Assembly: GCA_019787685.1 (NCBI GenBank)
Contig: JAHNUO010000014.1
Span: forward strand, 806,001-870,000
Source: Chiua virens
Taxonomy: Eukaryota; Basidiomycota; Agaricomycetes; Boletales; Boletaceae
Reading direction: 5' to 3'
Length of the DNA stretch: 64,000 bases
In this document: positions 6,378 through 47,532 of the stretch, in pieces
How the letters are laid out: every line of letters starts with the position of its first letter
Position numbering within the stretch: the stretch's first letter is position 1
Notes under the pieces: model-generated
What the model was told of the DNA's origin: nothing
Databases searched by the model: none
What the model saw: the letters and a program-made list of their open reading frames with translations, nothing else
Translations under genes and position numbers: made by a program

Positions 6378-7587
6378 CTACTCTGCAATGATGTACCCAG
6401 TATCCCGAAACCATCCCTGTGCTTTCTCCGCTGTAATACATGCAGTTGCGTCTAACAGTGCGTGAATTGGATCATCATCAAGGCGTAGCTCGTGACCATG
6501 GCGACGAATATATGCCTTGAAGGAGAGCGTGCTGTAAGTATTCTTACACTTTATAGGCGACGTACGAGCGCTGAATGATTCTTCGATTGGTGTGAGGTCC
6601 GGGGAATATGGTGGCAGGAAAAGCATATGACATCCTGAAATAACATTGTGTCGATGTAAAATGCCAATCAAAATATTTCATTACCTACTTCGTGAACAAG
6701 ATTAATGACATCTCGGTTGTGGTGAATCCGGCAGTTGTCGAGCACGATGACAGAACGTTCCTGCGGATACGAATTCATATGGGGCAACTAACAGGTGGTT
6801 TCTTGTCGAAAAAATAGTAAAAGGGCCTCGAAATATATGCACTTACAACATCTTCAGCAATAAAGTCATAGAACTGCTCAGCGTCATACGAGCCCTCTAC
6901 CACCCGTGCCGCAAGGTATCCGTCTGTTGTCAGGGCCACACACAAAGAGTATCGGGTTCCACGGACAAAGACATCGCGGATTTGAGCACGTTGTCCCTCC
7001 ATAGCTCTACCAAAACGTCGCGCATATGTGCGGTCGTTTTTGCTCGTCTCATCGATAACAACGAACTAGGATCCATCACCAACGAAATCGGTTTGGAGCA
7101 TTTGCTTGAACTCCTCGCGTCGAACCTCGACCCGTTCTAAAGCGATTTTCCGGAGCATTTTTCGAGTAAGGTCAGCATCATTCAGGTTTCGAGACGGCCT
7201 TGAGGTTGAAATCTCGATATTGTGTTCGACAGCAAGCCATGTGCAGACCTCATCAAGAAAGAGATCGGAGTCTTCAGAGTAAAGCCGCTCGATAGCGCCA
7301 AGGATTTTTCGAGTGATTTTTCGTGTGCGCCCAACCAGAGGAGACGGTGGCCGATTGACATTTCCGTATTCTGCGACGATCTTCCTCCATCGGTAACAGC
7401 TAGCTCTTGAGATTCCTAGAGCCTCACAGATGTCTTCAAGGGCCCAGCCATGGTTCCAGAGACCGAGAACACTCTCTTTGAGGTCGTCGCTGATCCGCCG
7501 ATTGACCATCGTAGACGCGTAGGGGTGGGTCCGTCGCTTTCCCCCGCTGCATGCTGTTGACACGGATTTCCTTTTTCGTCTGACCAT
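6378..7587 (-). pseudogene. DD34E transposase (IS630/Tc1-mariner type), left copy, nonsense mutation
   Basis: Cut-and-paste transposase, coded from 7587 leftwards. The N-terminus has a helix-turn-helix (GLWNHGWALEDICEALGISR, then YRWRK). The DDE core follows: first Asp in VVIDETSKND, second Asp in SVIVLDNCRIHH, and Glu in PPYSPDLTPIEE, with 34 residues between the second Asp and the Glu after removing a short intron near 6636-6690. The C-terminus is near 6378. A TAG at 7066-7068 stops the frame five codons before the first catalytic Asp, where the 26.4 kb copy has Gln (CAG). The inverted-repeat boundary at 7448 falls within this gene, but the gene runs through it uninterrupted. Confidence 0.8.
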
Positions 7588-7702
7588 CGCCGCGCCTCAA
7601 AATTTATCACACCCAATCTCGTTTCATTCACACACTGCTGTAATTGCAACTGGAGTGATCTTGTTTGTAAACGAAGTACTTTAATGAACTTTAAACGAAA
7701 AT

Positions 7703-8777
7703 CTACCAAGTCCCCCATGTCACGGCTCTCACTATTATTTCCTCGTTTGGCCCAAGTTGCCATTCAAACATTCTGGGGATGTTATCACGAGACACAGCAA
7801 TATGAATAAAAGAGACACTTACAGTTAAGTAGAGCGCATTGGCAGTTTCGGTCCCGTCACGCCGTACCGAAAGTCTAACTCGAGCGGTGAATTGGCAGTG
7901 AAGGCGCGAAAAGGGGGGAATGACGATTGCGCGCGTGTCAAACCGATGTAGCCGAAAATGCGCTGGAAAAAGGATTTTATGAGTAGGAATGTAAAGAATA
8001 AAAAAGACGTACAGTGAATATGTCTGAAATGGACTACGACCGTGTGATCGGTGTCGACCAAAGCAGTGTCGACCATCCTGTGTGTGATGCTGAAGAAAAG
8101 AAGATGAAGTAGATGCAGATAAAGTGGATAGGAAATATAATGCGTACTGGCGTAAATCTGAGCGTAAACGCACATTCAAAATGTCAGTGCGACGATAAAA
8201 TTTGCGAATTTGAAGGTAGACTTGAGGCTGTATGGACGAACGAGTGACGATGAGAAGGAAGGATAAATAAAAATAATGAGTACGCACCGGCGAGCCACCG
8301 AGTGATGGTGCGAATATATTGGTGATGGTGCCAAATATGTAGTCCATCTTGTTTGGAGGACGCTGAACGTTGGGGTCGTATAGTTGGATACTAAAACGAC
8401 AAGGTTAGATCGATTGTGGTGGAAGAAAGAAAAGAAAGACGTACGTGTCTCCAATGCTGAAGGCCAGATCGGTTACCAGAGCCGCATCACTCTCGCTAGG
8501 GAATCGAACTTGATGAAAACGGAAGTATGGTTAGTGTGGCATGACCAGCAATGAAACAACCTACTCTGGAGTGAATTGTAAGGATCCATATGTCTGGGGA
8601 CTGGATCATCCTGATGGATGTGAGCGATGTGCGAAAACGGGATGGCGGATCTGATGACTGCCATGACCATAGAAAGGGGATGGGATGGGTGGAATACGAA
8701 GGAATTTGGATGTACTGGTTGGCAGAAGGAGAGAAAGATAGCCGCGAGTCATCTTCATGCGCTTTTTGTAGTGACAA
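7703..8777 (-). CDS. BAH-domain-like protein, left-arm copy
   Basis: Multi-exon gene on the minus strand, with short introns visible as GT(A/G)...AG in the reverse complement. One exon run gives DAALVTDLAFSIGDT, then IQLYDPNVQRPP, GTITNIFAPSLGGSP, and after an intron PQVYLQIRKFYRRTDIL. The order 'functional when', 'diverse payload then', 'W/RKFYRxxD' resembles a bromo-adjacent homology domain, which reads chromatin or mediates protein contacts. The 3' exons toward 7703 are hard to join in frame, so the C-terminus is uncertain and the gene may be damaged. It lies about 60 bp from the presumed end of the DD34E transposon. Identical in the right arm. Confidence 0.4.
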
Positions 8778-8910
8778 CCTAATTGGAAAAGCGCGATTAG
8801 CACACTAGCAGTGGATTAGGTAATGAATAAATCACCACTTGTGTGGAAGTTTGACGGCGCCGCTTTGTAGTGATGTCAGCCCGATTGGAAAAGCGCGATT
8901 AGCACGCCCG
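8768..8910. repeat. Short direct repeat pair upstream of the BAH-like gene
   Basis: The block AATTGGAAAAGCGCGATTAG near 8780 recurs with one change (CGATTGGAAAAGCGCGATTAG) near 8882, each preceded by GTAGTGA. The spacing is about 100 bp, possibly promoter-proximal. The pair is mirrored near 46070-46212. Confidence 0.5.
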
Positions 8911-8939
8911 AATTGGGAAGGTGGGCTATGATTACCCAA

Positions 8940-10620
8940 TTTAGTAAACAAAGCGCGTGGAAAATGAAACACGCACAATAATGAGGTGGGCCAAAGTGGT
9001 GGGCGTGGGGGGGGGGTTTCAGGGGCATGTAACGATTGGTATGCTACGGAGACGAGGGCTCAGCCGTAAGAAAACGAAGCGGAAGACGGGAATGCGAACT
9101 TTGATGCCTACACATTCACCATTAACCGTTTGATGCGCAGAGCATGGTTTTAGGGGTATTTTCATGACATGTAGATAAATTGTCCAGGATGGTGAGGAGG
9201 ATGGAAGATGACTAAGACGTGCTAAAGGAGAAATTGGCGGGGAAAACGTTGGGGGGGATTGCACAGGAACTAAGCGAGGATTATGAGGGGGATCGCTAGG
9301 ATGAACCGCAGAGGAGCTGGGGGGGGGGGGGAACTGTGGGTGGATTTGCTGGAATGGACAGCACAGGAACTAAGGAAGGGACTAGGGGGAGAGTCGCCGG
9401 AATGGACCAGAGATACGGTCAAGTCTCGTACCGTAACGAAGGTGTCATACGGGGTAGAAAGAGGGTGAATTAAGATGCGACGTACCTCTTTAATGTCGGG
9501 TGTCCAGACGGCGATCGAGACCGGATCAACTTCGATGCACAATCAAGAGCACCAAACTGTTGGATCACGTTCTGATATGCGTATAGATACGCCCAGATCA
9601 GCAAGATCCGAAATCAAGACGTGGGGTAACACCTAGATCATGGTCTTCAAGATTCGAAAACAATTAGAAAAGGTGCATACGGAGGACGATCTACGCGGTT
9701 TTGAGGGGCGTAGATTAGGATCCGAAATTAGTCACACATAGATCTCCCTTAGGTCGTTCGTAACTTGTATTTCGGTATATTGGACTGGAACTGTAACTTG
9801 GGCTGGAACTGTAACTAGCTTTGTACTACTATTGCGTACTACGGGGTGAGTGGTCGTAAAGAAATACAATCATGGCAAGACAGGATTTAAATAGTGACCG
9901 TCAATTTCAAACCCAGCGCGTGATGCTGGGTTTGAAATCGGCCATCACTACTTAAGGTGGGAAATTAAGGTGGGAAATTTCGTGCGACTTTCTTTCTTCC
10001 TCAAGGTCTCAACCTTTTTGACGGTCACCCATGTAGCACGGCCACAAATGTCGTAGTAGATGGTAATAATACTACTTACTTGTAACGTGTAATACATTCA
10101 ATGGCCTCCAGCCTCCAACGAAACAAAGTCTTTGAGATGAGCTCTATTGCTCCGTATCTCCCCCGGTTCTGACGTGATGCGTTTAGCTCGTATCATACTG
10201 TACGTCGGATGCCGCCCTCCGTTACTCGGTAATCCTGACGATATGCTTAGGCTCGATGATCCAACGATCGGTATCAATCATCGTTATTCATCAGGAAACC
10301 TCACATGTAGGCTTTGTAGTCCTGTAGTACTGGTCGACTTCTTCTCCTTCAATTTATAAAATTATATAGTCACCTAATCCGAGCTAATCACCTATATATG
10401 ACCATATAGGAATGCATAATTAGAAACCCACTACTACATAGAATACAAACCAACCCTATAGCACAGCCTATAGCACAGTTCTGGACATGGTATCATCGAC
10501 AAATGGCAATATATTGATTGTGGACGGTACTACTACAACTATAGTGTCAGTCTGATACAAGTTGTTACAGGTCCTTACCGAGTGTTCCAGCGCACACCTG
10601 AGTCAGCCTGACCGATCGAC
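8940..10620. other. Left-arm intergenic region, no supported gene
   Basis: Contains G-rich tracts (9007-9016; a run of 13 G near 9319-9331), a strong hairpin at 9904-9938 and AT-rich sequence. Short open frames such as 9270-9542 (minus) have no recognisable motif. The mirrored region is about 44360-46040. Confidence 0.45.
9904..9938. repeat. Perfect 14-bp hairpin, left arm
   Basis: ATTTCAAACCCAGC, a 7-nt loop, then GCTGGGTTTGAAAT. The flanks (AGTGACCGTCA / CGGCCATCACT) extend the pairing imperfectly. It resembles the stem of a small foldback element. Mirrored at 45043-45077. Confidence 0.7.
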
Positions 10621-10723
10621 GGTCAAATCCCCTGCATCGTCGGAAGTTCTCGAAACCCACGCTCGGAGCCAACCAGGATATCTGGCCGGTTTGACATCCT
10701 CCCGACTCCTCCGAGGTGCAGGA

Positions 10724-11898
10724 TCAGTTCGCGAGGATGATTTCGGGGTGGATGTTGACGAACGATCGTGCTGACAACGTGGACGTCAGTGCGTCGTTCA
10801 TTGAGACAGGAAAAATCACTCGGGTTGTTAGATGAACGGTCCAGACAGTTGACCAAGGCGACATGTGGGAGCACTTCCACTTGATCGAGCTGGATGCGGT
10901 ACCGAGCGTGCACATCGCAGCGCTGGCCACAAGCGACCGTGGCCACAGTGATGTCGGGACAGAGCTAATGTGATCAAGTTGTGGGGTGAGTGAATGCGAG
11001 GGAGAGCGAAACGACAAAAAATGAACCTGATGTCCTGGCATGCCAATACTGGGCAAGAACATGTTAGTTGCTGAGGCTCGAAATGGCAGACAGGTGGATG
11101 GGGTGTAATGTACAATTTTGGCACGCCGAGCTGAGTGGCTCGAGCAGTGCGTGGTAGGCGAGCATATCTACCTGTATCATGAGCAGCAAGGCTAAACGAC
11201 GACTATAGTCAAAACGGATACCCACGCGCGTATGCTTTCGAGCCGAACAATCCTTGCTCTTTGCCAGCAAAGGCGATGAGTTCAATGTTGGTATGGAACT
11301 TGAGGCTGTGCACCTTAATACGTTGAGCGATCGCAAGTAATGAGACGGTGCCAGAATCATCGTCATTGCCGCCAGGTACCTACGGAAAACGACACCAGTG
11401 TATCAGTAGAAAATTAGCACAAAAGCGCACGGGTGACGAGCCAAATAACCCTCATGGATCATAGTGACCTGAGATCAGAACCATTACCTCCTGGTCTATT
11501 GTGCCAGCATATCTACTTCACGCGCAATGAATGCCCTGCGTCCAATGAGCAGAAGCGCAAGTCGGGAAAAACGACTTACCAGACGACGTTGGGTACAACA
11601 TCAAGAATAACTTGAGCTCGCACGAAGCACCGGTATCCTCGCGCGACCCATTAGAAAATAAACGGCACGACTCGATCCTGGATGTGCTGTCTCCGTTGCT
11701 CAGGTAGTGAGTATCCTTGCGCATCCTGTCGATAGAGATGCCATTGACGATACTCACAATGATAGGGTCAAATTCGAGGGAGGAGAGGAGCTTGCGAACG
11801 TGAGCGATGGCTTCTGCTGGGACGGGGAGGTAGGAGACGGGAGTGGGTGGAATCGGGGGGCCTTCCAGTAGCGTGGAGACTGCATGGGCGGTCAACAC
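10724..11898 (-). CDS. M28-family metallopeptidase-like gene, left-arm copy
   Basis: Likely Zn-dependent aminopeptidase. Read on the minus strand, the N-terminal part has AHAVSTLLEGPPIPPTPVSY and FDPIIVSIVNGISIDRM. Then come family hallmarks: VMVLISGHYD (metal-ligand His/Asp); GGNDDDSGTVSLLAIAQRI (bridging Asp region); and ELIAFAGKEQGLFGSKAYA, where M28 enzymes usually have EEQG, here KEQG. IQVDMLAYHALLEPL follows (second Asp region). Introns are short. Some joins require frame changes and the C-terminal His region is unclear, so it may be a damaged gene. It is divergent from HFM1, whose start is about 280 bp away. No clear signal peptide was found. Confidence 0.6.
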
Positions 11899-12176
11899 TG
11901 CGTCACCGTCATGGTCGTGTCATGTTGTGTCCTCGCGTTTTGCTGGTGCTGCTGAAGGTTGGGAGGTAGTATGCACAGAAGTGGGTAAGTAATCAAGAAG
12001 CCAGCTTGGGCAGCACCGCCGTGCGAAGGGGTCGATTGGTCCCGGCTCGCGACCCCTTTGAATGACCAATCTGCCCTCCTCCGTTTAGGATCGCGGCACA
12101 CGTGACCTCAAACCTCAACGTTCAACACCCTGTTCGGACGAGATCAGGGATTTGACGCGCTTTGTCCTCCACTATC

Positions 12177-15100
12177 ATGGATCACAACACCGGAGCTTTT
12201 GGGAATTGGGTCACACAGAACAACTCTTTCCTACCGCATGAAGATGGACATTATATGGAGCGGTTTCCATCTCCAGCTTCGATGTTACCAGATGCCATTC
12301 GCATCTACCGCGATTTTCCTGGTGTTTGGAACCACGCAGGTGGGTGTATATCTTTATCCGTGTTGCATGTCTGTATATGCTACCTCAGAATACACACCGT
12401 CTCCGCCTGAATCTCAGGAAGCGAGTTATGTGCACCTTCCGTTACCATCTGTCAGACCTTACGGTGGCGGACACACTCGCAGCGCGGAACAAGCTTTCAG
12501 CTTCCCCACTGGGCCATTTGTCCACAATTCATCACATCGGTGCCCTCCGGCTTCGATGTCACCAGATTCCACTCTCATCTATCCCGACTTCCTTGGTGTT
12601 TGGAACCATACAGGTGCGTGTATGCGCATTTATCTGTCTTGCATGTCTGTATATGCTATTTCAGAACACACACCGTCTCCGTCTGAATCTCAGGAAACAA
12701 GTTATGCCCACCCTCTGTTACCGTCCGTCAGGCTTTACAGTGACGTATCCCATCGCAGTGAAGAGCGACCTTTCGGCTTCCCCACTGGGCCATTTGTCCA
12801 TAATCCGTCACATCGGCGTGGCAAGTGCACTTTCTACTATCGTGTGTTACCTTTCTCTGACATTCCTTGCAGATATGCATATGGATCGTTCTGAGATGTC
12901 GCGGTCGTATTACCCAATCGTGTCGGGCCACTCTCCCTCTTGGATACCCCGTCCAACAAGTCCAACAAGTCCGGGCGAACGACCTCCTGAGTCTCATACT
13001 GCCACTGTCAGTGGGAATACCGCACAAAATGGTTTTGGTTGGAGGTTGCGCCCGGTCTCAGAATTACGTGCGTTGAAGGAATATGCTCCGACTCTCATTA
13101 CTTAATGCCCATCCTAGCTGGCAGGTTCCGTGGAGTATTCAAGTTCGGAGTATTCAATGCGGTACAATCAGCATGCTTTGACCAGGTTCGAATCGTTTTA
13201 GACTCGGATGTAAGGCATGGAAACTCATTCTTTATCCAGGTCTTAGGTTCGGATGAAAACTTGGTAAGTAGTTTTAATTCCAGGTAGCCTGGTAAATCTA
13301 AATTAAGTTCCCAGATTATCAGTGGTTGGTTTCGCAACTTGTGTCTTGTCCATTACCCTTGACCCCCCTGTTAGCACCTACTGGATGTGGAAAAACTGTT
13401 CTCTTCGAGCTGAGCATGATCCGAATTTTTACGCAATCCGCAAGTGATCCACGATCTGCCAAGTGTGTTTACGTTGCGCCAACAAAGGTCAGGCTTTCTC
13501 TCTCGACTTCGAATGTCATCCCACTTAAGGTTTTCAGGCCTTATGTACCGAGAAGTATAATGAGTGGACTGCAAAATTCGGAGGACTTGGAATTAAATGT
13601 TAGCCACATTTGCAACGCCAAGGTCACGATAGTGATTAACCAATACCTCCGCGGTCAGGCTGCGAATTGACTGGTGACACGTTCACGTTGGGAAAGGGAA
13701 TATGGGGTGACGCCAAAAGCTCGCACATAATGTAAGTTCAAGGGCAAGCCCTGCTGGTAATTATTCAGATGTGTTATTTTCACAGCATAACAACAGTAAG
13801 GAGGATTCGCCACATCGTTTCTGAATCATTTTCCACCCGTTTTAGGCAGAGAAGTGGGACAGTTTGACCCGAAATTGGTGCGCCTACACTCTTCTCTGTA
13901 CGAGTCATACGATGACGTCAGATAGGTCTGATCATGCCAAGATCCTATCACATATCAAACTATTCCTCGTGGACGAAGTAAGTAAACTGTATTGCTTTTT
14001 ATATATGTATGATAATTTATGTCGCGTCTAGGTCCACATCCTAAGTGAATCACGAGGGAGCACTCTTGAAGTCATAATTTCCCGTATGAAAGCGCGCGGA
14101 ACCGGCACGCGATTTCTTCTTGTTTCCGCCACTATCCCCAGCGTGGAAGATGTCGCGTGTTGGATTGGGAGTGCTGACGGAAGTGGTCAACCCGCTAAAA
14201 TATTTCAGGTTGGTTAACATCCTCGCATGCTCTCGTGGCCTAACAATTTTTGCAGTTCGGTGACGAATTCCGGCCCTGCCAGCTTACCAAATTTGTCTAT
14301 GGGGTGGCAAAACCTCAAGGGCAGAATGATTTTGCATATGCCCGTACCCTTGATTTGCGCCTATTCCCTGTGTTACAGCAACACTCCACCAACAAACCAA
14401 TCCTTGTCTTCTGCCCCACTAGGAAAGGTAGGCAGGGTCTATGATCTTTGACATACACAGTTTACCGGCTTGATGTCGCATATAGGCACACTGGATACAG
14501 CCAAGCAGTTGGCGAAGGACTATGAGAAAGCCAAGAAGGAGAAAAAGAATTTGCCTTGGCGACCTCCTGCGCGGTATGCTTCTGCATTCCTTGGGATTCC
14601 TTGCTCATTCCTGTTTAGTATTGACCGGAGGTTTCATGACAATGACTTGACCAGTGCGTTTACGTAATTGTGTTTTCATCTGGCAAAGCGTGACAGCGTG
14701 ACAGCTCTCGCGTCTGTGGGGATCGCAGTTCACCATGCCGGCTTGGACATAGATGATAGGAGAGCTGTAGAAGATTTATATTTGCAAAAGGCTCTATGCG
14801 TCTTGGTCGCCACGTCTGTAGGGGCTTTTCGCATTTACACCTACCGATCTCACCATCCCTTAGACCCTGGCAGTGGGCGTTAATTTGCGTAGGTTTGTAT
14901 AACTAGCCATTTTCGCCGTCTCAACGTTATCAAGCTGCCCAAATGGTCGTCATCAAGGGTGTCAAAAGATATCAAAACAGAGAGATGAGAGAGTACTCAG
15001 ATCTCGATATCATGCAGATGATGGGTCGAGCAGTAAGTTTCCCGCTCCAGCTTCTGTGTCCAAACTCCAGTTTTCGGCAATCAGGGGCGACCACAGTTTA

Positions 15101-18100
15101 GTGCGTATTCATTCCTGTCTGCTTTGTATTCGCTCATTGTCACGTGGCTTGTTAAGATGACGAAGGAGTCGCGATAATTTTATGTGAACCAGAACTGGAA
15201 CATAAGTATCGTACGCTCGTTCTGGGGAATACCGCTCTGGAGAGTAGCCTTCATCAAAATCTCCCAGAACACTTGAATTCGGAGATCGGTTTGGGCACCA
15301 TATCAACTGTCGAAAATGCAAAAGACTGGCTTCGGCACTCCTTTTTCTACCATCGTATCCAAAAGAATCCTCGTCATTATGATATCGGCAAATGCGAAAA
15401 CCAGACTTGGGAAGACAAAGTGGATGAGATCATCATACAAAGCATACGCAGTTTATGCGATGCACAGCTAATTGTGCACACTAAGGATGGAAGACTTTCT
15501 TCAACGGAGTATGGTGATATAATGAGCAAGGTAGGAGTCTTTACGTTGCATGACACTGTGATAACGCTCCAAAGTTTTATATTCGGCAAACAACGGTGCG
15601 TGCTGTCAATCAGATTCTTACTTGTCGTTCATCCCAACGGAAGATGCGGGCGATACTCAATCTACCTTCGTCAACCACCATGCGCGAAATCGTGAGAGGC
15701 TTGCAAACTGAAGTAATTTATATAACTGAAGATGGCTAGCTTGAACTTGTGTCTACCTCTGACGAGTGAGTCGTCACCTCATTGTCTTCTTCCTAGGCCG
15801 ATGATCCTCGTAGGGTTTCGGACCTGAAGCTACGTAATGGGGAGAAAGCAGTGTGTAGTCAAGGCTTCCCCGATCACGGAGTCAAATTCATCTGCTTTTA
15901 GATGTTTGAGAAGATTCGTCGTCGCAGCGATATTCGGTTTCCTCCCAAGAAAGCAGATACTACGAGTGACAAGGTTCTGCTATTGATCCAGGTGAAAAAC
16001 CAAATTTCAATGTGCAATCATAGTCCTCAGAAAAAGAACAGGGAATTTTCGCGGGCATTCCTTTCAACAGTGCCGAATTTAAATGTACGGAAGGACAACC
16101 ATACCTGGAAGCTGTCTCTATATTTCACCACGCAACGCGCATTGTATCAGGTGAGTGCTCACAACAAATGAGGACTCCACTCACTGCGTATTAGCTATAG
16201 CAGATGTTGCTATTGTCAACCGGAGTGGAGCTCAGGTCAAGTATGCACTTGAACTGCAAGTGTTTTTGAGCTTTTCGCGAATGCTTTTCTCAAGTTTGCT
16301 ACAGAGTACGCTGCTTCAGTGCGAAGGCGTGGGAAGACAAGCCGCTGGTTCTCAGACAGATCGAACACATTGGCGAAAAATCGCGAGTATACCAGTGCAG
16401 GCTCAGTGCGCTATAATTCAATGCTGTAACAGGGTCAAGGTACTGGCTGAGAATGGGGTCGGTACGATCCAAAAGCTGTTACAGACGTCACCTCTTCGAA
16501 TCGAGCAGGTCAGGCAGTTTTCTACTGCCGTTTTTATCACTGATAATCCCTAGCTTCTTAACCGCCGTCCCCCATTTGGCTTTGAAGTTTTGGCTGCCGC
16601 AAACAAATTTCCAAGGTATCATCTGAACATGAAGGAGCTCAAGTCTAGGTACAGCGATGGAAACTCGCCCGTGGAAGTGGAGTTTGTCGTCCAATGTGGT
16701 ATTGTTAGCAGTGATTCGCCACCCCAAAGAGCGAAGAAGCACGAGTGGGGTGAAACTGAGACGACGACTCTTCTGGTGGTGACCTCTGATATGGTCTTTA
16801 TTGACTTCCGACGCGTCGCGTGAGTGATTCTCTTCGTGTTGGTTCGTAAAACACTGATTTCGTTTTTCCACATAAGCACGAAAGCACTCAAAGAGAATAA
16901 GGAATTTACCCTCACAGCGCAACTCACGAAACCAAGCCAAGTGATCAACGCATACATCGCTTCCGTACACAACATTCCTGTTTCTTGTCTTCGCAAGCAG
17001 CTAATAGATATGTTAGCAAAAGTTTGCGGGCATTACCGTTTCTCGTACTTTAGTACCAAATGTTCCACCGGACAAATATCCAACTATGGAAACTCGAAGG
17101 TTGACATCCCTTGTGCGTGCTCTGCCTCTCCAGATCCTGAACGAGACATTCATGGAACCAAGGAAATGGACTTACAAGGCCTCGAGGATATTCCTGACTT
17201 CTGGGATTTCGACTTGGATGATGAGGATGAGGCTTCACATTTTCATATGGCAGATGTGTCGAAACACCATGGTAGGTTTATCGCGTGAAGCGGGTGTTAG
17301 CTAATTGGTGGTTTCCTAGGTGCTGATGAAGATACATCCAAACCGCAACAGCCCCAGCTGAATCTACCAGCGAAGCAACAAACGGAACGAGATCTGAGAA
17401 AACGCCCGGACGGCAAGTACGAGTGAGTTCACTTTCCTTCAACTCGGCACCCGTACGAATCGTTGTCCAGATGTAATCACCATTGCAAGGACAAAATGAA
17501 GTGTCGCCATTACTGGTGCGTTGTAACCAAAATTTTGGACCGCTAACGTCTGTTTTAGTTGCCAGGAGGGAATGCTAGCTCCCCCACGTGCCGGGAAGAA
17601 GAAACAGCCAGTAAATGGACACGATTCCAAAGCGAAATCCGTTCCGCAACCCCGAAAAGTCCTCACGGCAGGATCACCACAGGACAAAGATCAGAAACGG
17701 CGAGCGGTGCTGCATCAAATCATACCAGAAAGTCGAAGGTGCGCCAAACAATTCCCCCGGCACTCGGACAAGGTGCATGAGAGCCCCGATACTATGTCAA
17801 GTCCCCGCCTTGTGAAAGAGAGTCTGGAGTTGGCCCACTGTTCCAAGAAACCACGGAGCGGCAAAGCAACGCCAAACTTTGACTTGCATTCGACGACTTT
17901 GAAACGATTGCGATCGCCCCTCTTGGTCCCAACCGATGACTCTTGCGACGAGTTTCCATTAATTTCCGAAGGATACAGGCTCCCTCCACCATCAAAACGG
18001 CCCAGAACAGATGTTGCCATTGCCTCATGCCAGCCATCCCCTTCGCACAAAAAGGTTTGTTGCTTGTTGTGGATTTCACCATGCTGATTGCGTGTCAGGC

Positions 18101-35602: not shown

Positions 35603-35769
35603 AATACTCACAGACCACGGGAAAACACGAGGCTGAAGAAGCAGATGTGACCATTCTGCGAAGCAAAAAACCCAAGTTGGAGGCCAATCTCCCTTAGAAT
35701 GAATCTGAAGAAGCGCCAAGTGGGGGCATCTCTTCCGCCAAGCCTTCTATCACCATCGAAGACAACGCC

Positions 35770-36541: not shown

Positions 36542-36631
36542 TATTGGTCGTCAACAACGTAAACATACGGTGGTATTGCCGTAAGGATCTAAGGTTTCTT
36601 CACGTTCAGAGGAAATGGGGGATGTCAAACT

Positions 36632-39600
36632 TCAGTCCGTAATTATTTCTACACCTCCACTCGCCACCCAACGGTCGAATTCCTCAAGAGGATCATCCAG
36701 GGTTTGCAAACTGATCTTGCCAGTTTCTGTATGTTTTTTTGTGGGGCAAGAGAAACCACGTGGACCGACCGTGGAACCGTCGGTCATCCGATGATCAACC
36801 ACGACGTCGTTATCAGGGCCAGAAAGACAGAATCGTTTCTCGGAAAGCTCAGTAGAAGATCGAGGATCTTTTCGTGATTTGGCCTGACACGCAATCAGCA
36901 TGGTGAAATCCACAACAAGCAACAAACCTTTTTGTGCGAAGGGGATGGCTGGCATGAGGCAATGGCAACATCTGTTCTGGGCCGTTTTGATGGTGGAGGG
37001 AGCCTGTATCCTTCGGAAATTAATGGAAACTCGTCGCAAGAGTCATCGGTTGGGACCAAGAGGGGCGATCGCAATCGTTTCAAAGTCGTCGAATGCAAGT
37101 CAAAGTTTGGCGTTGCTTTGCCGCTCCGTGGTTTCTTGGAACAGTGGGCCAACTCCAGACTCTCTTTCACAAGGCGGGGACTTGACATAGTATCGGGGCT
37201 CTCATGCACCTTGTCCGAGTGCCGGGGGAATTGTTTGGCGCACCTTCGACTTTCTGGTATGATTTGATGCAGCACCGCTCGCCGTTTCTGATCTTTGTCC
37301 TGTGGTGATCCTGCCGTGAGGACTTTTCGGGGTTGCGGAACGGATTTCGCTTTGGAATCGTGTCCATTTACTGGCTGTTTCTTCTTCCCGGCACGTGGGG
37401 GAGCTAGCATTCCCTCCTGGCAACTAAAACAGACGTTAGCGGTCCAAAATTTTGGTTACAACGCACCAGTAATGGCGACACTTCATTTTGTCCTTGCAAT
37501 GGTGATTACATCTGGACAACGATTCGTACGGGTGCCGAGTTGAAGGAAAGTGAACTCACTCGTACTTGCCGTCCGGGCGTTTTCTCAGATCTCGTTCCGT
37601 TTGTTGCTTCGCTGGTAGATTTAGCTGGGGCTGTTGCGGTTTGGATGTATCTTCATCAGCACCTAGGAAACCACCAATTAGCTAACACCCGCTTCACGCG
37701 ATAAACCTACCATGGTGTTTCGACACATCTGCCATATGAAAATGTGAAGCCTCATCCTCATCATCCAAGTCGAAATCCCAGAAGTCAGGAATATCCTCGA
37801 GGCCTTGTAAGTCCATTTCCTTGGTTCCATGAATGTCTCGTTCAGGATCTGGAGAGCAGAGCACGCACAAGGGATGTCAACCTTCGAGTTTCCATAGTTG
37901 GATATTTGTCCGGTGGAACATTTGGTACTAAAGTACGAGAAACGGTAATGCCCGCAAACTTTTGCTAACATATCTATTAGCTGCTTGCGAAGACAAGAAA
38001 CAGGAATGTTGTGTACGGAAGCGATGTATGCGTTGATCACTTGGCTTGGTTTCGTGAGTTGCGCTGTGAGGGTAAATTCCTTATTCTCTTTGAGTGCTTT
38101 CGTGCTTATGTGGAAAAACGAAATCAGTGTTTTACGAACCAACACGAAGAGAATCACTCACGCGACGCGTCGGAAGTCAATAAAGACCATATCAGAGGTC
38201 ACCACCAGAAGAGTCGTCGTCTCAGTTTCACCCCACTCGTGCTTCTTCGCTCTTTGGGGTGGCGAATCACTGCTAACAATACCACATTGGACGACAAACT
38301 CCACTTCCACGGGCGAGTTTCCATCGCTGTACCTAGACTTGAGCTCCTTCATGTTCAGATGATACCTTGGAAATTTGTTTGCGGCAGCCAAAACTTCAAA
38401 GCCAAATGGGGGACGGCGGTTAAGAAGCTAGGGATTATCAGTGATAAAAACGGCAGTAGAAAACTGCCTGACCTGCTCGATTCGAAGAGGTGACGTCTGT
38501 AACAGCTTTTGGATCGTACCGACCCCATTCTCAGCCAGTACCTTGACCCTGTTACAGCATTGAATTATAGCGCACTGAGCCTGCACTGGTATACTCGCGA
38601 TTTTTCGCCAATGTGTTCGATCTGTCTGAGAACCAGCGGCTTGTCTTCCCACGCCTTCGCACTGAAGCAGCGTACTCTGTAGCAAACTTGAGAAAAGCAT
38701 TCGCGAAAAGCTCAAAAACACTTGCAGTTCAAGTGCATACTTGACCTGAGCTCCACTCCGGTTGACAATAGCAACATCTGCTATAGCTAATACGCAGTGA
38801 GTGGAGTCCTCATTTGTTGTGAGCACTCACCTGATACAATGCGCGTTGCGTGGTGAAATATAGAGACAGCTTCCAGGTATGGTTGTCCTTCCGTACATTT
38901 AAATTCGGCACTGTTGAAAGGAATGCCCGCGAAAATTCCCTGTTCTTTTTCTGAGGACTATGATTGCACATTGAAATTTGGTTTTTCACCTGGATCAATA
39001 GCAGAACCTTGTCACTCGTAGTATCTGCTTTCTTGGGAGGAAACCGAATATCGCTGCGACGACGAATCTTCTCAAACATCTAAAAGCAGATGAATTTGAC
39101 TCCGTGATCGGGGAAGCCTTGACTACACACTGCTTTCTCCCCATTACGTAGCTTCAGGTCCGAAACCCTACGAGGATCATCGGCCTAGGAAGAAGACAAT
39201 GAGGTGACGACTCACTCGTCAGAGGTAGACACAAGTTCAAGCTAGCCATCTTCAGTTATATAAATTACTTCAGTTTGCAAGCCTCTCACGATTTCGCGCA
39301 TGGTGGTTGACGAAGGTAGATTGAGTATCGCCCGCATCTTCCGTTGGGATGAACGACAAGTAAGAATCTGATTGACAGCACGCACCGTTGTTTGCCGAAT
39401 ATAAAACTTTGGAGCGTTATCACAGTGTCATGCAACGTAAAGACTCCTACCTTGCTCATTATATCACCATACTCCGTTGAAGAAAGTCTTCCATCCTTAG
39501 TGTGCACAATTAGCTGTGCATCGCATAAACTGCGTATGCTTTGTATGATGATCTCATCCACTTTGTCTTCCCAAGTCTGGTTTTCGCATTTGCCGATATC

Positions 39601-42600
39601 ATAATGACGAGGATTCTTTTGGATACGATGGTAGAAAAAGGAGTGCCGAAGCCAGTCTTTTGCATTTTCGACAGTTGATATGGTGCCCAAACCGATCTCC
39701 GAATTCAAGTGTTCTGGGAGATTTTGATGAAGGCTACTCTCCAGAGCGGTATTCCCCAGAACGAGCGTACGATACTTATGTTCCAGTTCTGGTTCACATA
39801 AAATTATCGCGACTCCTTCGTCATCTTAACAAGCCACGTGACAATGAGCGAATACAAAGCAGACAGGAATGAATACGCACTAAACTGTGGTCGCCCCTGA
39901 TTGCCGAAAACTGGAGTTTGGACACAGAAGCTGGAGCGGGAAACTTACTGCTCGACCCATCATCTGCATGATATCGAGATCTGAGTACTCTCTCATCTCT
40001 CTGTTTTGATATCTTTTGACACCCTTGATGACGACCATTTGGGCAGCTTGATAACGTTGAGACGGCGAAAATGGCTAGTTATACAAACCTACGCAAATTA
40101 ACGCCCACTGCCAGGGTCTAAGGGATGGTGAGATCGGTAGGTGTAAATGCGAAAAGCCCCTACAGACGTGGCGACCAAGACGCATAGAGCCTTTTGCAAA
40201 TATAAATCTTCTACAGCTCTCCTATCATCTATGTCCAAGCCGGCATGGTGAACTGCGATCCCCACAGACGCGAGAGCTGTCACGCTGTCACGCTTTGCCA
40301 GATGAAAACACAATTACGTAAACGCACTGGTCAAGTCATTGTCATGAAACCTCCGGTCAATACTAAACAGGAATGAGCAAGGAATCCCAAGGAATGCAGA
40401 AGCATACCGCGCAGGAGGTCGCCAAGGCAAATTCTTTTTCTCCTTCTTGGCTTTCTCATAGTCCTTCGCCAACTGCTTGGCTGTATCCAGTGTGCCTATA
40501 TGCGACATCAAGCCGGTAAACTGTGTATGTCAAAGATCATAGACCCTGCCTACCTTTCCTAGTGGGGCAGAAGACAAGGATTGGTTTGTTGGTGGAGTGT
40601 TGCTGTAACACAGGGAATAGGCGCAAATCAAGGGTACGGGCATATGCAAAATCATTCTGCCCTTGAGGTTTTGCCACCCCATAGACAAATTTGGTAAGCT
40701 GGCAGGGCCGGAATTCGTCACCGAACTGCAAAAATTGTTAGGCCACGAGAGCATGCGAGGATGTTAACCAACCTGAAATATTTTAGCGGGTTGACCACTT
40801 CCGTCAGCACTCCCAATCCAACACGCGACATCTTCCACGCTGGGGATAGTGGCGGAAACAAGAAGAAATCGCGTGCCGGTTCCGCGCGCTTTCATACGGG
40901 AAATTATGACTTCAAGAGTGCTCCCTCGTGATTCACTTAGGATGTGGACCTAGACGCGACATAAATTATCATACATATATAAAAAGCAATACAGTTTACT
41001 TACTTCGTCCACGAGGAATAGTTTGATATGTGATAGGATCTTGGCATGATCAGACCTATCTGACGTCATCGTATGACTCGTACAGAGAAGAGTGTAGGCG
41101 CACCAATTTCGGGTCAAACTGTCCCACTTCTCTGCCTAAAACGGGTGGAAAATGATTCAGAAACGATGTGGCGAATCCTCCTTACTGTTGTTATGCTGTG
41201 AAAATAACACATCTGAATAATTACCAGCAGGGCTTGCCCTTGAACTTACATTATGTGCGAGCTTTTGGCGTCACCCCATATTCCCTTTCCCAACGTGAAC
41301 GTGTCACCAGTCAATTCGCAGCCTGACCGCGGAGGTATTGGTTAATCACTATCGTGACCTTGGCGTTGCAAATGTGGCTAACATTTAATTCCAAGTCCTC
41401 CGAATTTTGCAGTCCACTCATTATACTTCTCGGTACATAAGGCCTGAAAACCTTAAGTGGGATGACATTCGAAGTCGAGAGAGAAAGCCTGACCTTTGTT
41501 GGCGCAACGTAAACACACTTGGCAGATCGTGGATCACTTGCGGATTGCGTAAAAATTCGGATCATGCTCAGCTCGAAGAGAACAGTTTTTCCACATCCAG
41601 TAGGTGCTAACAGGGGGGTCAAGGGTAATGGACAAGACACAAGTTGCGAAACCAACCACTGATAATCTGGGAACTTAATTTAGATTTACCAGGCTACCTG
41701 GAATTAAAACTACTTACCAAGTTTTCATCCGAACCTAAGACCTGGATAAAGAATGAGTTTCCATGCCTTACATCCGAGTCTAAAACGATTCGAACCTGGT
41801 CAAAGCATGCTGATTGTACCGCATTGAATACTCCGAACTTGAATACTCCACGGAACCTGCCAGCTAGGATGGGCATTAAGTAATGAGAGTCGGAGCATAT
41901 TCCTTCAACGCACGTAATTCTGAGACCGGGCGCAACCTCCAACCAAAACCATTTTGTGCGGTATTCCCACTGACAGTGGCAGTATGAGACTCAGGAGGTC
42001 GTTCGCCCGGACTTGTTGGACTTGTTGGACGGGGTATCCAAGAGGGAGAGTGGCCCGACACGATTGGGTAATACGACCGCGACATCTCAGAACGATCCAT
42101 ATGCATATCTGCAAGGAATGTCAGAGAAAGGTAACACACGATAGTAGAAAGTGCACTTGCCACGCCGATGTGACGGATTATGGACAAATGGCCCAGTGGG
42201 GAAGCCGAAAGGTCGCTCTTCACTGCGATGGGATACGTCACTGTAAAGCCTGACGGACGGTAACAGAGGGTGGGCATAACTTGTTTCCTGAGATTCAGAC
42301 GGAGACGGTGTGTGTTCTGAAATAGCATATACAGACATGCAAGACAGATAAATGCGCATACACGCACCTGTATGGTTCCAAACACCAAGGAAGTCGGGAT
42401 AGATGAGAGTGGAATCTGGTGACATCGAAGCCGGAGGGCACCGATGTGATGAATTGTGGACAAATGGCCCAGTGGGGAAGCTGAAAGCTTGTTCCGCGCT
42501 GCGAGTGTGTCCGCCACCGTAAGGTCTGACAGATGGTAACGGAAGGTGCACATAACTCGCTTCCTGAGATTCAGGCGGAGACGGTGTGTATTCTGAGGTA

Positions 42601-42804
42601 GCATATACAGACATGCAACACGGATAAAGATATACACCCACCTGCGTGGTTCCAAACACCAGGAAAATCGCGGTAGATGCGAATGGCATCTGGTAACATC
42701 GAAGCTGGAGATGGAAACCGCTCCATATAATGTCCATCTTCATGCGGTAGGAAAGAGTTGTTCTGTGTGACCCAATTCCCAAAAGCTCCGGTGTTGTGAT
42801 CCAT
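36632..42804 (-). CDS. HFM1: MER3/HFM1 meiotic DNA helicase, right-arm copy
   Basis: Mirror of the left gene, from ATG at 42804 to stop at 36632. All helicase motifs are present and unchanged in every exon compared. The only difference found is loss of one base opposite 17125 (right-arm position about 37856). It shifts the frame between the segment following CSTGQISNYGNSKVDI and the acidic block DPERDIHGTKEMDLQG, unless a small intron removes it. The two copies point at each other across the 4.7-kb centre. Confidence 0.8.
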
Positions 42805-43082
42805 GATAGTGGAGGACAAAGCGCGTCAAATCCCTGATCTCGTCCGAACAGGGTGTTGAACGTTGAGGTTTGAGGTCACGTGTGCCGCGATCCTAAACGG
42901 AGGAGGGCAGATTGGTCATTCAAAGGGGTCGCGAGCCGGGACCAATCGACCCCTTCGCACGGCGGTGCTGCCCAAGCTGGCTTCTTGATTACTTACCCAC
43001 TTCTGTGCATACTACCTCCCAACCTTCAGCAGCACCAGCAAAACGCGAGGACACAACATGACACGACCATGACGGTGACGCA

Positions 43083-44257
43083 GTGTTGACCGCCCATGCA
43101 GTCTCCACGCTACTGGAAGGCCCCCCGATTCCACCCACTCCCGTCTCCTACCTCCCCGTCCCAGCAGAAGCCATCGCTCACGTTCGCAAGCTCCTCTCCT
43201 CCCTCGAATTTGACCCTATCATTGTGAGTATCGTCAATGGCATCTCTATCGACAGGATGCGCAAGGATACTCACTACCTGAGCAACGGAGACAGCACATC
43301 CAGGATCGAGTCGTGCCGTTTATTTTCTAATGGGTCGCGCGAGGATACCGGTGCTTCGTGCGAGCTCAAGTTATTCTTGATGTTGTACCCAACGTCGTCT
43401 GGTAAGTCGTTTTTCCCGACTTGCGCTTCTGCTCATTGGACGCAGGGCATTCATTGCGCGTGAAGTAGATATGCTGGCACAATAGACCAGGAGGTAATGG
43501 TTCTGATCTCAGGTCACTATGATCCATGAGGGTTATTTGGCTCGTCACCCGTGCGCTTTTGTGCTAATTTTCTACTGATACACTGGTGTCGTTTTCCGTA
43601 GGTACCTGGCGGCAATGACGATGATTCTGGCACCGTCTCATTACTTGCGATCGCTCAACGTATTAAGGTGCACAGCCTCAAGTTCCATACCAACATTGAA
43701 CTCATCGCCTTTGCTGGCAAAGAGCAAGGATTGTTCGGCTCGAAAGCATACGCGCGTGGGTATCCGTTTTGACTATAGTCGTCGTTTAGCCTTGCTGCTC
43801 ATGATACAGGTAGATATGCTCGCCTACCACGCACTGCTCGAGCCACTCAGCTCGGCGTGCCAAAATTGTACATTACACCCCATCCACCTGTCTGCCATTT
43901 CGAGCCTCAGCAACTAACATGTTCTTGCCCAGTATTGGCATGCCAGGACATCAGGTTCATTTTTTGTCGTTTCGCTCTCCCTCGCATTCACTCACCCCAC
44001 AACTTGATCACATTAGCTCTGTCCCGACATCACTGTGGCCACGGTCGCTTGTGGCCAGCGCTGCGATGTGCACGCTCGGTACCGCATCCAGCTCGATCAA
44101 GTGGAAGTGCTCCCACATGTCGCCTTGGTCAACTGTCTGGACCGTTCATCTAACAACCCGAGTGATTTTTCCTGTCTCAATGAACGACGCACTGACGTCC
44201 ACGTTGTCAGCACGATCGTTCCTCAACATCCACCCCGAAATCATCCTCGCGAACTGA
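43083..44257 (+). CDS. M28-family metallopeptidase-like gene, right-arm copy
   Basis: Mirror of 10724-11898 on the plus strand. The HYD motif is near 43500-43527, the GGNDDDSG block near 43604-43645 and the KEQGLFGS block near 43720-43745. One substitution separates the copies (C at 10759 against C at 44222 on opposite strands). It changes one residue in the 3' frames. Same doubts about intactness. Confidence 0.6.
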
Positions 44258-45042
44258 TCCTGCACCTCGGAGGAGTCGGGAGGATGTCAAACCGGCCAGA
44301 TATCCTGGTTGGCTCCGAGCGTGGGTTTCGAGAACTTCCGACGATGCAGGGGATTTGACCGTCGATCGGTCAGGCTGACTCAGGTGTGCGCTGGAACACT
44401 CGGTAAGGACCTGTAACAACTTGTATCAGACTGACACTATAGTTGTAGTAGTACCGTCCACAATCAATATATTGCCATTTGTCGATGATACCATGTCCAG
44501 AACTGTGCTATAGGCTGTGCTATAGGGTTGGTTTGTATTCTATGTAGTAGTGGGTTTCTAATTATGCATTCCTATATGGTCATATATAGGTGATTAGCTC
44601 GGATTAGGTGACTATATAATTTTATAAATTGAAGGAGAAGAAGTCGACCAGTACTACAGGACTACAAAGCCTACATGTGAGGTTTCCTGATGAATAACGA
44701 TGATTGATACCGATCGTTGGATCATCGAGCCTAAGCATATCGTCAGGATTACCGAGTAACGGAGGGCGGCATCCGACGTACAGTATGATACGAGCTAAAC
44801 GCATCACGTCAGAACCGGGGGAGATACGGAGCAATAGAGCTCATCTCAAAGACTTTGTTTCGTTGGAGGCTGGAGGCCATTGAATGTATTACACGTTACA
44901 AGTAAGTAGTATTATTACCATCTACTACGACATTTGTGGCCGTGCTACATGGGTGACCGTCAAAAAGGTTGAGACCTTGAGGAAGAAAGAAAGTCGCACG
45001 AAATTTCCCACCTTAATTTCCCACCTTAAGTAGTGATGGCCG

Positions 45043-45077
45043 ATTTCAAACCCAGCATCACGCGCTGGGTTTGAAAT
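45043..45077. repeat. Perfect 14-bp hairpin, right arm
   Basis: Mirror of 9904-9938, with the stem unchanged. Confidence 0.7.
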
Positions 45078-46202
45078 TGACGGTCACTATTTAAATCCTG
45101 TCTTGCCATGATTGTATTTCTTTACGACCACTCACCCCGTAGTACGCAATAGTAGTACAAAGCTAGTTACAGTTCCAGCCCAAGTTACAGTTCCAGTCCA
45201 ATATACCGAAATACAAGTTACGAACGACCTAAGGGAGATCTATGTGTGACTAATTTCGGATCCTAATCTACGCCCCTCAAAACCGCGTAGATCGTCCTCC
45301 GTATGCACCTTTTCTAATTGTTTTCGAATCTTGAAGACCATGATCTAGGTGTTACCCCACGTCTTGATTTCGGATCTTGCTGATCTGGGCGTATCTATAC
45401 GCATATCAGAACGTGATCCAACAGTTTGGTGCTCTTGATTGTGCATCGAAGTTGATCCGGTCTCGATCGCCGTCTGGACACCCGACATTAAAGAGGTACG
45501 TCGCATCTTAATTCACCCTCTTTCTACCCCGTATGACACCTTCGTTACGGTACGAGACTTGACCGTATCTCTGGTCCATTCCGGCGACTCTCCCCCTAGT
45601 CCCTTCCTTAGTTCCTGTGCTGTCCATTCCAGCAAATCCACCCACAGTTCCCCCCCCCCCCAGCTCCTCTGCGGTTCATCCTAGCGATCCCCCTCATAAT
45701 CCTCGCTTAGTTCCTGTGCAATCCCCCCCAACGTTTTCCCCGCCAATTTCTCCTTTAGCACGTCTTAGTCATCTTCCATCCTCCTCACCATCCTGGACAA
45801 TTTATCTACATGTCATGAAAATACCCCTAAAACCATGCTCTGCGCATCAAACGGTTAATGGTGAATGTGTAGGCATCAAAGTTCGCATTCCCGTCTTCCG
45901 CTTCGTTTTCTTACGGCTGAGCCCTCGTCTCCGTAGCATACCAATCGTTACATGCCCCTGAAACCCCCCCCCCACGCCCACCACTTTGGCCCACCTCATT
46001 ATTGTGCGTGTTTCATTTTCCACGCGCTTTGTTTACTAAATTGGGTAATCATACCCCACCTTCCCAATTCGGGCGTGCTAATCGCGCTTTTCCAATCGGG
46101 CTGACATCACTACAAAGCGGCGCCGTCAAACTTCCACACAAGTGGTGATTTATTCATTACCTAATCCACTGCTAGTGTGCTAATCGCGCTTTTCCAATTA
46201 GG

Positions 46203-47277
46203 TTGTCACTACAAAAAGCGCATGAAGATGACTCGCGGCTATCTTTCTCTCCTTCTGCCAACCAGTACATCCAAATTCCTTCGTATTCCACCCATCCCAT
46301 CCCCTTTCTATGGTCATGGCAGTCATCAGATCCGCCATCCCGTTTTCGCACATCGCTCACATCCATCAGGATGATCCAGTCCCCAGACATATGGATCCTT
46401 ACAATTCACTCCAGAGTAGGTTGTTTCATTGCTGGTCATGCCACACTAACCATACTTCCGTTTTCATCAAGTTCGATTCCCTAGCGAGAGTGATGCGGCT
46501 CTGGTAACCGATCTGGCCTTCAGCATTGGAGACACGTACGTCTTTCTTTTCTTTCTTCCACCACAATCGATCTAACCTTGTCGTTTTAGTATCCAACTAT
46601 ACGACCCCAACGTTCAGCGTCCTCCAAACAAGATGGACTACATATTTGGCACCATCACCAATATATTCGCACCATCACTCGGTGGCTCGCCGGTGCGTAC
46701 TCATTATTTTTATTTATCCTTCCTTCTCATCGTCACTCGTTCGTCCATACAGCCTCAAGTCTACCTTCAAATTCGCAAATTTTATCGTCGCACTGACATT
46801 TTGAATGTGCGTTTACGCTCAGATTTACGCCAGTACGCATTATATTTCCTATCCACTTTATCTGCATCTACTTCATCTTCTTTTCTTCAGCATCACACAC
46901 AGGATGGTCGACACTGCTTTGGTCGACACCGATCACACGGTCGTAGTCCATTTCAGACATATTCACTGTACGTCTTTTTTATTCTTTACATTCCTACTCA
47001 TAAAATCCTTTTTCCAGCGCATTTTCGGCTACATCGGTTTGACACGCGCGCAATCGTCATTCCCCCCTTTTCGCGCCTTCACTGCCAATTCACCGCTCGA
47101 GTTAGACTTTCGGTACGGCGTGACGGGACCGAAACTGCCAATGCGCTCTACTTAACTGTAAGTGTCTCTTTTATTCATATTGCTGTGTCTCGTGATAACA
47201 TCCCCAGAATGTTTGAATGGCAACTTGGGCCAAACGAGGAAATAATAGTGAGAGCCGTGACATGGGGGACTTGGTAG
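46203..47277 (+). CDS. BAH-domain-like protein, right-arm copy
   Basis: Mirror copy of the 7703-8777 gene, here on the plus strand. Likely introns: after GGAGACAC near 46533 (GTACGT...TTTAG); 46695-46750 (GTGCGT...ACAG); 46805-46889 (GTGCGT...TTCAG); and 46969-47018 (GTACGT...CCAG). BAH-like residues (IQLYDPN, GTITNIF, VYLQIRKFYRR) lie in the second and third of these exons. No sequence difference from the left copy was seen in the coding part. Confidence 0.4.
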
Positions 47278-47392
47278 ATTTTCGTTTAAAGTTCATTAAA
47301 GTACTTCGTTTACAAACAAGATCACTCCAGTTGCAATTACAGCAGTGTGTGAATGAAACGAGATTGGGTGTGATAAATTTTGAGGCGCGGCG

Positions 47393-47532
47393 ATGGTCAG
47401 ACGAAAAAGGAAATCCGTGTCAACAGCATGCAGCGGGGGAAAGCGACGGACCCACCCCTACGCGTCTACGATGGTCAATCGGCGGATCAGCGACGACCTC
47501 AAAGAGAGTGTTCTCGGTCTCTGGAACCATGG
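47393..47532 (+). pseudogene. Transposase 5' stub at the right-arm end
   Basis: Mirror of 7448-7587: the first 46 codons of the left DD34E transposase, ending LKESVLGLWNHG, after which the sequence changes to unrelated TTTAAAAATAAG. This defines the outer junction of the inverted repeat. Confidence 0.9.

What the first reader, a model, noticed from the sequence alone, without database searches (positions are those of the whole stretch)
7448..47532. Giant 17.7-kb near-identical inverted repeat around a 4.7-kb centre
Seen: every frame from about 7.45 to 25.14 kb recurs in reverse order and strand at 29.84-47.53 kb. Coordinate sums are constant at 54980-54982, and only five differences were found in about 17.69 kb. 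Arms this long and this similar mean very recent duplication, ongoing gene conversion, or mis-assembly. Large palindromes are structurally unstable and are rarely kept outside sex chromosomes and amplicons. If real, this is a recent segmental inversion-duplication carrying several host genes.
Basis: seen in the sequence. Interest (0 to 1): 0.88.

Follow-up and report, generated by a model that had tools for sequence, protein, structure and literature searches.

The report
Back-to-back giant palindromes in a mushroom
A mushroom chromosome segment carries two giant mirror-image DNA duplications joined end to end, and a smaller palindrome in the same genome indicates that such mirror halves keep correcting each other, a trick best known from sex chromosomes.

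Summary
The inverted repeat is there exactly as described: window 7448-25143 against 47532-29839, 5 mismatches and 2 single-base gaps. It is half of the structure. A second one abuts it with no base between: 47533-66162 against 90081-71452 (18,630 bp, 5 mismatches), partly beyond the window. The order is X-A-c1-A'|B-c2-B'-Y, 82.6 kb, on a 1.21-Mb contig of what is probably Chiua virens, a bolete. Relatives elsewhere in the genome run through X|A, A|c1, B|c2 and B'|Y; none listed runs through A'|B. So two fold-backs were joined at their outer ends. The contig has further near-identical palindromes with 3.3- and 4.7-kb spacers. One, D, recurs on contig C30 with the same arm ends. A 555-bp insert is in both C30 arms and neither C14 arm, and 13 of 13 variable columns of 694 separate the loci, none the arms. 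That supports D as real and homogenised by arm-to-arm gene conversion. I read the 18-kb pair the same way. An amplification or assembly artefact for the pair itself stays open: no reads could be examined. No mating-type match lay on this contig.

The parts
1..7447 (+). X, left flank; joins arm A in the native order
   Evidence: C9:1198942-1201386 runs through X|A at 88%, C33:153670-155016 at 85% by 77 bases; a 176-aa transposase-like frame (7069-7596, minus) runs through the joint
7448..25143 (+). Arm A of palindrome 1; holds parts of a Ski2-type helicase gene (13302-15692) and a Helitron-like DUF6570/PIF1 stretch (20140-22536)
   Evidence: Pfam DEAD (25.6 bits, cut-off 26), SNRNP200_wHTH, DUF6570, AAA_19, PIF1 (25.5 bits, cut-off 25.9)
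25144..29838 (+). Spacer c1, single copy; joined natively to A on its left; fold-back joint on its right
   Evidence: C14:669324-670184 runs through A|c1 by 115 bases; no listed row outside the structure runs through c1|A'
26295..29801 (+). 3.5-kb transposon with about 47-bp terminal inverted repeats and a DDE_3 transposase, inserted at TA inside a 130-bp repeat; coordinates are those of the inverted repeats and include a few flanking bases
   Evidence: 99% copy C22:277128-280630; terminal repeats; DDE_3 and HTH; TA duplication read
29839..47532 (-). Arm A', inverted copy of A
47532..47533 (.). A'|B joint, novel; the transposase sequence that continues at X|A stops here (the frame stays open for 64 unrelated residues)
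   Evidence: none of the 12 rows outside the structure runs through it, one overruns by 6 bases; frames
47533..64000 (+). Arm B of palindrome 2, continues to window position 66162; mirror B' is 71452-90081, spacer c2 66163-71451, these beyond the window
   Evidence: 18,630-bp inverted match, 5 mismatches, no gap; reverse transcriptase frame (RVT_1) at 63662

Best explanation
Two large palindromes lie back to back on a repeat-bearing bolete contig. They formed in one rearrangement. Two chromosome ends or replication forks (X-A-c1 and Y'-B-c2) each folded back over a 5-kb loop and copied 18 kb of their own sequence in reverse. The two copied ends were then joined without shared bases, creating the outer joint A'|B. 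Afterwards, pairing of each arm with its mirror lets gene conversion erase differences and sometimes flips the spacer; c2 stands opposite to what a simple fold-back predicts. SHOWN: the anatomy; which joints have unpaired relatives; conversion-like homogenisation in the stretch tested of palindrome D on the same contig. INFERRED: that the 18-kb pair is real in the organism, that it arose in one event, the fold-back route, and that conversion acts on it as on D.
For: Structure. Native joints run through by relatives: X|A, A|c1, B|c2, B'|Y (one relative, C12:892148-893195, 74-77%). No row outside the structure runs through A'|B (12 rows), c1|A' or c2|B'; these lists hold only the best candidates. 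Frames: a 176-aa transposase-like frame continues across X|A and changes sequence at A'|B; a 184-aa frame continues across B|c2 and changes at c2|B'. A'|B shares no base with either native continuation (letters). Of 5 pairs of at least 800 bp and 95% identity in 314 kb of C14, 3 are inverted, with 4.7-5.3-kb spacers, and 2 direct. A further palindrome, 100% over 4,062 bp with a 3,258-bp spacer, is at C14:355-373 kb. D: both arms recur on C30, the second with exactly the ends of C14's own second arm in the same search, and a 555-bp insert sits in both C30 arms and neither C14 arm; 13 of 13 variable columns of 694 are locus-specific, 0 arm-specific. Yeast fold-backs with loops of thousands of nucleotides are reported (PMC7467729, passages).
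Against: No reads or depth were seen. I found no near-identical second copy of A or B elsewhere, so the D test could not be repeated on the 18-kb pair; but the two whole-arm searches did not list even the query's own place, so their silence is weak. Shorter queries that did list themselves cover only the arm ends. Both arms are similarly long (17.7 and 18.6 kb), which would suit a technical length limit. That c1|A' and c2|B' are new rests partly on missing rows in capped lists. The flip of c2 could be an arbitrary choice by an assembler.
Confidence: 0.6

Rival explanations
1. The 18-kb pair is a technical product: fold-back or amplification chimeras were built into the contig, or two contig ends were wrongly closed.
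For: Inverted joins less than 10 kb apart are the commonest chimera of multiple displacement amplification (337 of 475 chimeras in PMC1855051, passages), and complex multi-inversion reads occur (PMC13265396, passages). A plus c1 is 22.4 kb and B plus c2 23.9 kb, sizes usual for long-read inserts (recalled). The differences in palindrome 1 include two single-base indels, one in a G-run. c2 ends in a G-rich minisatellite, a hard place for assembly.
Against: Three separate joints would all have to be artefacts. The plain long-read fold-back artefact is defined with a gap of at most 200 bp (PMC12870357, part 1 of 5 of the text), not about 5 kb. Palindrome D on the same contig is supported independently by its C30 copy. 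No N in the window or the loci read.
Confidence: 0.27
2. Real, but simply very young: an inverted duplication so recent that mutation has had no time; gene conversion plays no part at this locus.
For: Only 10 substitutions in 36.3 kb of arms. No diverged second copy of the palindrome was listed (with the weakness that these did not list the query's own place).
Against: In the stretch tested of D the arms stay identical while the two loci differ by 13 of 694 columns, so the genome does homogenise such arms.
Confidence: 0.11
3. A circular or dumbbell-shaped molecule (stem A'B, loops c1 and c2) was inserted between X and Y.
For: The order A-c1-A'-B-c2-B' is that of a linearised dumbbell (reasoning).
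Against: It predicts that A'|B is the native joint and that X|A and B'|Y are new. The relatives show the reverse.
Confidence: 0.02

Closest known systems
Palindromes of mammalian and willow sex chromosomes
   Same: Arms of about 99.9% identity or more around a single-copy spacer; arm-to-arm conversion, here for palindrome D; only the starts of the abstracts of PMC3723533, PMC8981503 and PMC7023750 were seen
   Different: No mating-type match on this contig; two palindromes share one joint; content, as far as tested, largely transposon-type
Maintained inverted repeats of Caenorhabditis (PMC1803023, passages)
   Same: Arms agree within a genome more than between related genomes, on structures older than the split
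   Different: Smaller: the F44E5.4 example has 2.2 kb of arms and a 126-bp spacer, against 3.5 to 18.6-kb arms and 3.3 to 5.3-kb spacers here
Fold-back inversions of Saccharomyces cerevisiae (PMC7467729, passages)
   Same: Inverted copy primed across a loop that can be thousands of nucleotides long, followed by secondary rearrangement
   Different: There recovered in a laboratory selection, many in mutants; here found in a genome assembly and double-sided
Inverted chimeras of multiple displacement amplification (PMC1855051, passages)
   Same: Inverted joins a few kb apart
   Different: Laboratory product; would not be expected to put the same ends and a shared insert in two loci, as seen for D

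Membership tests
Gene-converting chromosome palindrome | Two long arms, near-identical, inverted, with a single-copy spacer | tested here: met
   within c1 the transposon itself has a copy on C22
Gene-converting chromosome palindrome | Arms evolve together: identical within a locus, different between homologous loci | tested here: inconclusive
   Met for palindrome D (13 of 13 variable columns of 694; shared 555-bp insert). Not testable for the 18-kb pair, for which no close second copy was listed
Gene-converting chromosome palindrome | Present in the organism, not only in the assembly | not testable with these tools
   No reads. Indirect support for D only
Sex or mating-type chromosome palindrome | Linked to the sex or mating-type locus | tested here: not met
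   STE3 matches on C13, C2 and C7 (23 rows) and homeobox (KN) matches on C4 and C6 (4 rows), none on C14. Only these two families were searched; C14 could still belong to the same chromosome as one of those contigs
Fold-back inverted duplication | One native and one novel inner joint per palindrome | tested here: met
   A|c1 and B|c2 run through by relatives; c1|A' and c2|B' by none of the listed rows outside the structure (lists hold the best candidates only)
Fold-back inverted duplication | Short complementary bases at the fold | tested here: inconclusive
   The native sequence beyond the folded ends of c1 and c2 is unknown
Long-read fold-back artefact | Breakpoint near the read middle with a gap of at most 200 bp | tested here: not met
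   Gap part only: spacers 3.3-5.3 kb against the definition in PMC12870357; reads were not available

The most novel reading that the evidence does not exclude
A mushroom contig without mating-type matches is a palindrome district: several inverted duplications with 3-5-kb spacers, made repeatedly by double-sided fold-back repair and kept intact for the age of its homologous copies by arm-to-arm conversion and spacer flipping, perhaps in nuclei that stay apart for most of the life cycle.
Probability: 0.33. Interest if true: 0.75.

Novelty: new member of a known kind. Interest (0 to 1): 0.55.

Why it matters
Large palindromes kept alike by arm-to-arm conversion are discussed mainly for sex chromosomes, where they are thought to replace recombination with a partner. 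Finding them on a mushroom contig without mating-type matches would suggest that linkage to a sex locus is not required. It would also give a test, with single-spore progeny, of how fast arms convert and spacers flip. If the 18-kb pair is an artefact, it is a warning about palindromic joints in a public genome.

Tried and rejected
Rejected: a mating-type palindrome (none of the 23 and 4 rows is on C14; two families only). Rejected: insertion of a circular inverted-repeat molecule (predicts the wrong native joints). Rejected: two independent palindromes, because they share one novel joint. Rejected as sole cause: the plain fold-back read artefact (gap definition).

Led nowhere: searches for the sequencing method of the Chiua virens genome (listings only; one passage of PMC12135008 that mentions the species without method). 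Microhomology at the folds could not be scored because the native continuation of c1 and c2 is unknown. A fifth palindrome at about C14:458-475 kb (coordinate sum 933487) was not followed. A 130-bp repeat lies within 100 bp of one breakpoint in each of the two large palindromes; the sampled stretches hold 4 copies, two of them mirrors of each other, and I treat this as a hint only.

A control that failed: the whole-arm searches (queries of 17.7 and 16.5 kb) did not list the query's own place or its mirror, though shorter queries did. Their lists are therefore incomplete at the top, and 'no close second copy' is weak.

Literature on palindromes in fungi: searches listed no title that reports large gene-converting palindromes in a mushroom outside mating-type regions; these are three word searches of open papers (15 of 18, 5 of 5 and 20 of 88 papers listed), not proof of absence.
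Full report
WHAT IS THERE. The window is G000:C14:806001-870000, in a 48.3-Mb genome of 136 contigs. The inverted repeat is real in the sequence: 7448-25143 against 47532-29839, 99.960%, 5 mismatches, 2 gaps. Fetching both sides showed a second inverted repeat that begins at the next base: window coordinates 47533-66162 against 90081-71452 (C14:853533-872162 and 877452-896081), 18,630 bp, 5 mismatches, no gap, spacer 5,289 bp. I call the order X-A-c1-A'|B-c2-B'-Y.

ORGANISM. Relatives of an arm protein, JVU11DRAFT_9167 and _9169, are filed as Chiua virens and listed with a contig of 1,210,310 bp, exactly the length of C14 (contig length). Chiua virens is a bolete. STE3 matches lie on C13, C2 and C7 and homeobox (KN) matches on C4 and C6 (23 and 4 rows, none on C14; only these two families were searched). 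So no sign of a mating-type region here.

WHICH JOINTS ARE OLD. I used diverged relatives elsewhere in the genome as witnesses; the lists hold the best candidates only. X|A: C9:1198942-1201386 runs through it at 88%, and C33:153670-155016 and C15:862387-863059 overrun it by 77 and 65 bases. A|c1: C14:669324-670184 runs through it by 115 bases, and after the arm end both sampled relatives continue into c1. B|c2: C5:334937-335821, C14:1018072-1018966 and C14:697873-698764, among others, run through it. B'|Y: one relative, C12:892955-893195, runs through it at 77%, and C12:892148-892935 continues into Y at 74%. A'|B: of 15 rows one is the place itself and two are its mirrors; none of the other 12 runs through it. 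The C9 relative stops at the last base of A', and C5:1676063-1676162 overruns by 6 bases. Open frames agree: a 176-aa transposase-like frame continues across X|A, while at A'|B its sequence changes after 49 residues, the frame staying open for 64 more; a 184-aa frame continues across B|c2 and changes at c2|B'. Hence X-A-c1 and Y'-B-c2 are native, A'|B is new, and c1|A' and c2|B' are new as far as the lists go. The two palindromes share one new outer joint, so one event, or two linked ones, made both. At A'|B neither native continuation matches the joined base, so no microhomology. For a simple fold-back anchored on Y, c2 should face the other way; it may have been flipped by recombination between B and B', or its orientation may be an arbitrary assembler choice.

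THE CENTRES AND FOLD POINTS. c1 holds a 3.5-kb transposon with 47-bp terminal inverted repeats, a DDE_3 transposase frame and a 99% copy at C22:277128-280630. It sits at a TA inside a 130-bp dispersed repeat; the fold point is about 40 bp further on. c2 ends in a 114-bp-period G-rich minisatellite. A transposon end and a G-rich array are plausible break or stall sites (inference), but the second is also hard to assemble.

CONTENT. Arm A: parts of a Ski2-type helicase gene (DEAD at 25.6 bits, cut-off 26; SNRNP200_wHTH 1.4e-13), a Helitron-like DUF6570 frame (4.3e-19) and an AAA_19/PIF1-like frame. Arm B: a reverse transcriptase frame (RVT_1, 3.1e-13). I sent 20 frames of the window, chosen by length or look, to Pfam; 11 of 20 had no family and 7 of the 9 others had transposon-type families. 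The family names are Pfam's; Ski2-type and Helitron-like are my readings.

OTHER PALINDROMES. In 314 kb of C14 (first 200 kb; 786-900 kb, the window) there are 5 pairs of at least 800 bp and 95% identity: 3 inverted (D and the two large ones) and 2 direct. The 786-900-kb part was chosen because of the finding; the first 200 kb was not, and was to be the start of the whole contig. D: C14:25524-28993 against 37129-33660, 99.885%, spacer 4,666 bp. A further one was seen through search rows: C14:358501-362562 against 369882-365821, 100% over 4,062 bp, spacer 3,258 bp, with symmetric hits out to 355187 and 373196. No comparable survey of other contigs was possible, so enrichment on C14 is untested. 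Rows for arm A do favour C14 (26 of 65 rows, several of them the two arms of one palindrome).

THE KEY TEST. Searching C14:32,500-38,500 (right arm of D and its edges) found both arms of D again on C30: C30:312021-316586 and 317142-318452 on the minus strand, 322178-322453 and 323009-326203 on the plus strand, 96-98%. The plus arm covers query 1165 to 4630, exactly as C14's own left arm does in that search. Both C30 arms are interrupted at the same place by 555 bp, with a 5-base overlap like a target duplication; both C14 arms lack it. A 700-bp piece of each C30 arm, aligned with both C14 arms, gave 13 variable columns of 694: all 13 separate C14 from C30, none separates arms. Over the whole D arms C14 has 2 substitutions besides 2 indels. 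A palindrome older than the split of the two copies, with arms alike within and different between, is the mark of arm-to-arm gene conversion. Independent formation at the same ends in both loci, or the same artefact twice, is far less likely. C30 may be the other haplotype of C14:20-38 kb, since the flanks are also matched (inference). But C79:31052-35887 carries one arm with its native flank at 98% without the insert; three copies do not fit two haplotypes simply, so segmental duplication is possible. The argument from arms does not depend on which it is.

HOW IT MOST LIKELY WORKS. Two ends fold back over a loop of about 5 kb, copy 18 kb of themselves and are joined. Large-loop fold-backs, with loops up to thousands of nucleotides and secondary rearrangements, are described in yeast (PMC7467729, passages). 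Later the arms pair and convert. For the 18-kb pair these steps are inferred; for D homogenisation is shown in the stretch tested.

ARTEFACT. Plain fold-back reads have gaps of at most 200 bp by the definition in PMC12870357 (first of five parts read), unlike these. Amplification chimeras do join inverted segments a few kb apart (PMC1855051, passages; PMC13265396, passages). I found no statement of how this genome was sequenced. The similar arm lengths count against certainty. So does the lack of a second copy of A or B: for longer pieces the best listed are 93% for A (98% over 97 bp) and 87-93% for B. But these two searches did not list even the query's own place, so a close copy could have been missed; the arm ends are better covered. 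I give the artefact 0.27.

KNOWN OR NEW. It resembles sex-chromosome palindromes (starts of abstracts) and maintained inverted repeats of Caenorhabditis (PMC1803023, passages). It does not show the sex-locus feature. I file it as a new member of a known kind, with the shared outer joint as its oddity.

Noticed in passing
window 47533-64000 and C14:870001-896081: Second 18.6-kb palindrome, directly abutting the first and cut by the window edge.
   Followed up: yes
C14:25524-37129 and C30:312021-326203: Small palindrome D present in two 96-98% identical loci, arms alike within each where tested, 555-bp insert in both C30 arms.
   Followed up: yes
C79:31052-35887: A third 98% copy of one D arm with its flank, without the 555-bp insert, ending at the inner arm edge.
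   Followed up: no
C14:355187-373196: Further palindrome, 100% over 4,062 bp, 3.3-kb spacer; arm A has 69% matches there in the DUF6570 part.
   Followed up: partly
C14:458231-475256 and C80: Search rows with a constant coordinate sum (933487) suggest another palindrome; C80 looks like a second copy of C14:474-491 kb.
   Followed up: no
C9:1198942-1256000: Relative of X plus arm A, 87-90% in the sampled part, with the inner part of A in the opposite orientation.
   Followed up: partly
window 26181-26302; C14:871940-872070; C14:897296-897426: A 130-bp dispersed repeat lies close to one breakpoint of each large palindrome.
   Followed up: partly
window 12271-12816: Two tandem copies of a 276-bp unit in arm A.
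   Followed up: no
C14:39442-45838 and 111987-118362: Direct pair of 6.4 kb, 97% identical, perhaps two retroelement copies.
   Followed up: no
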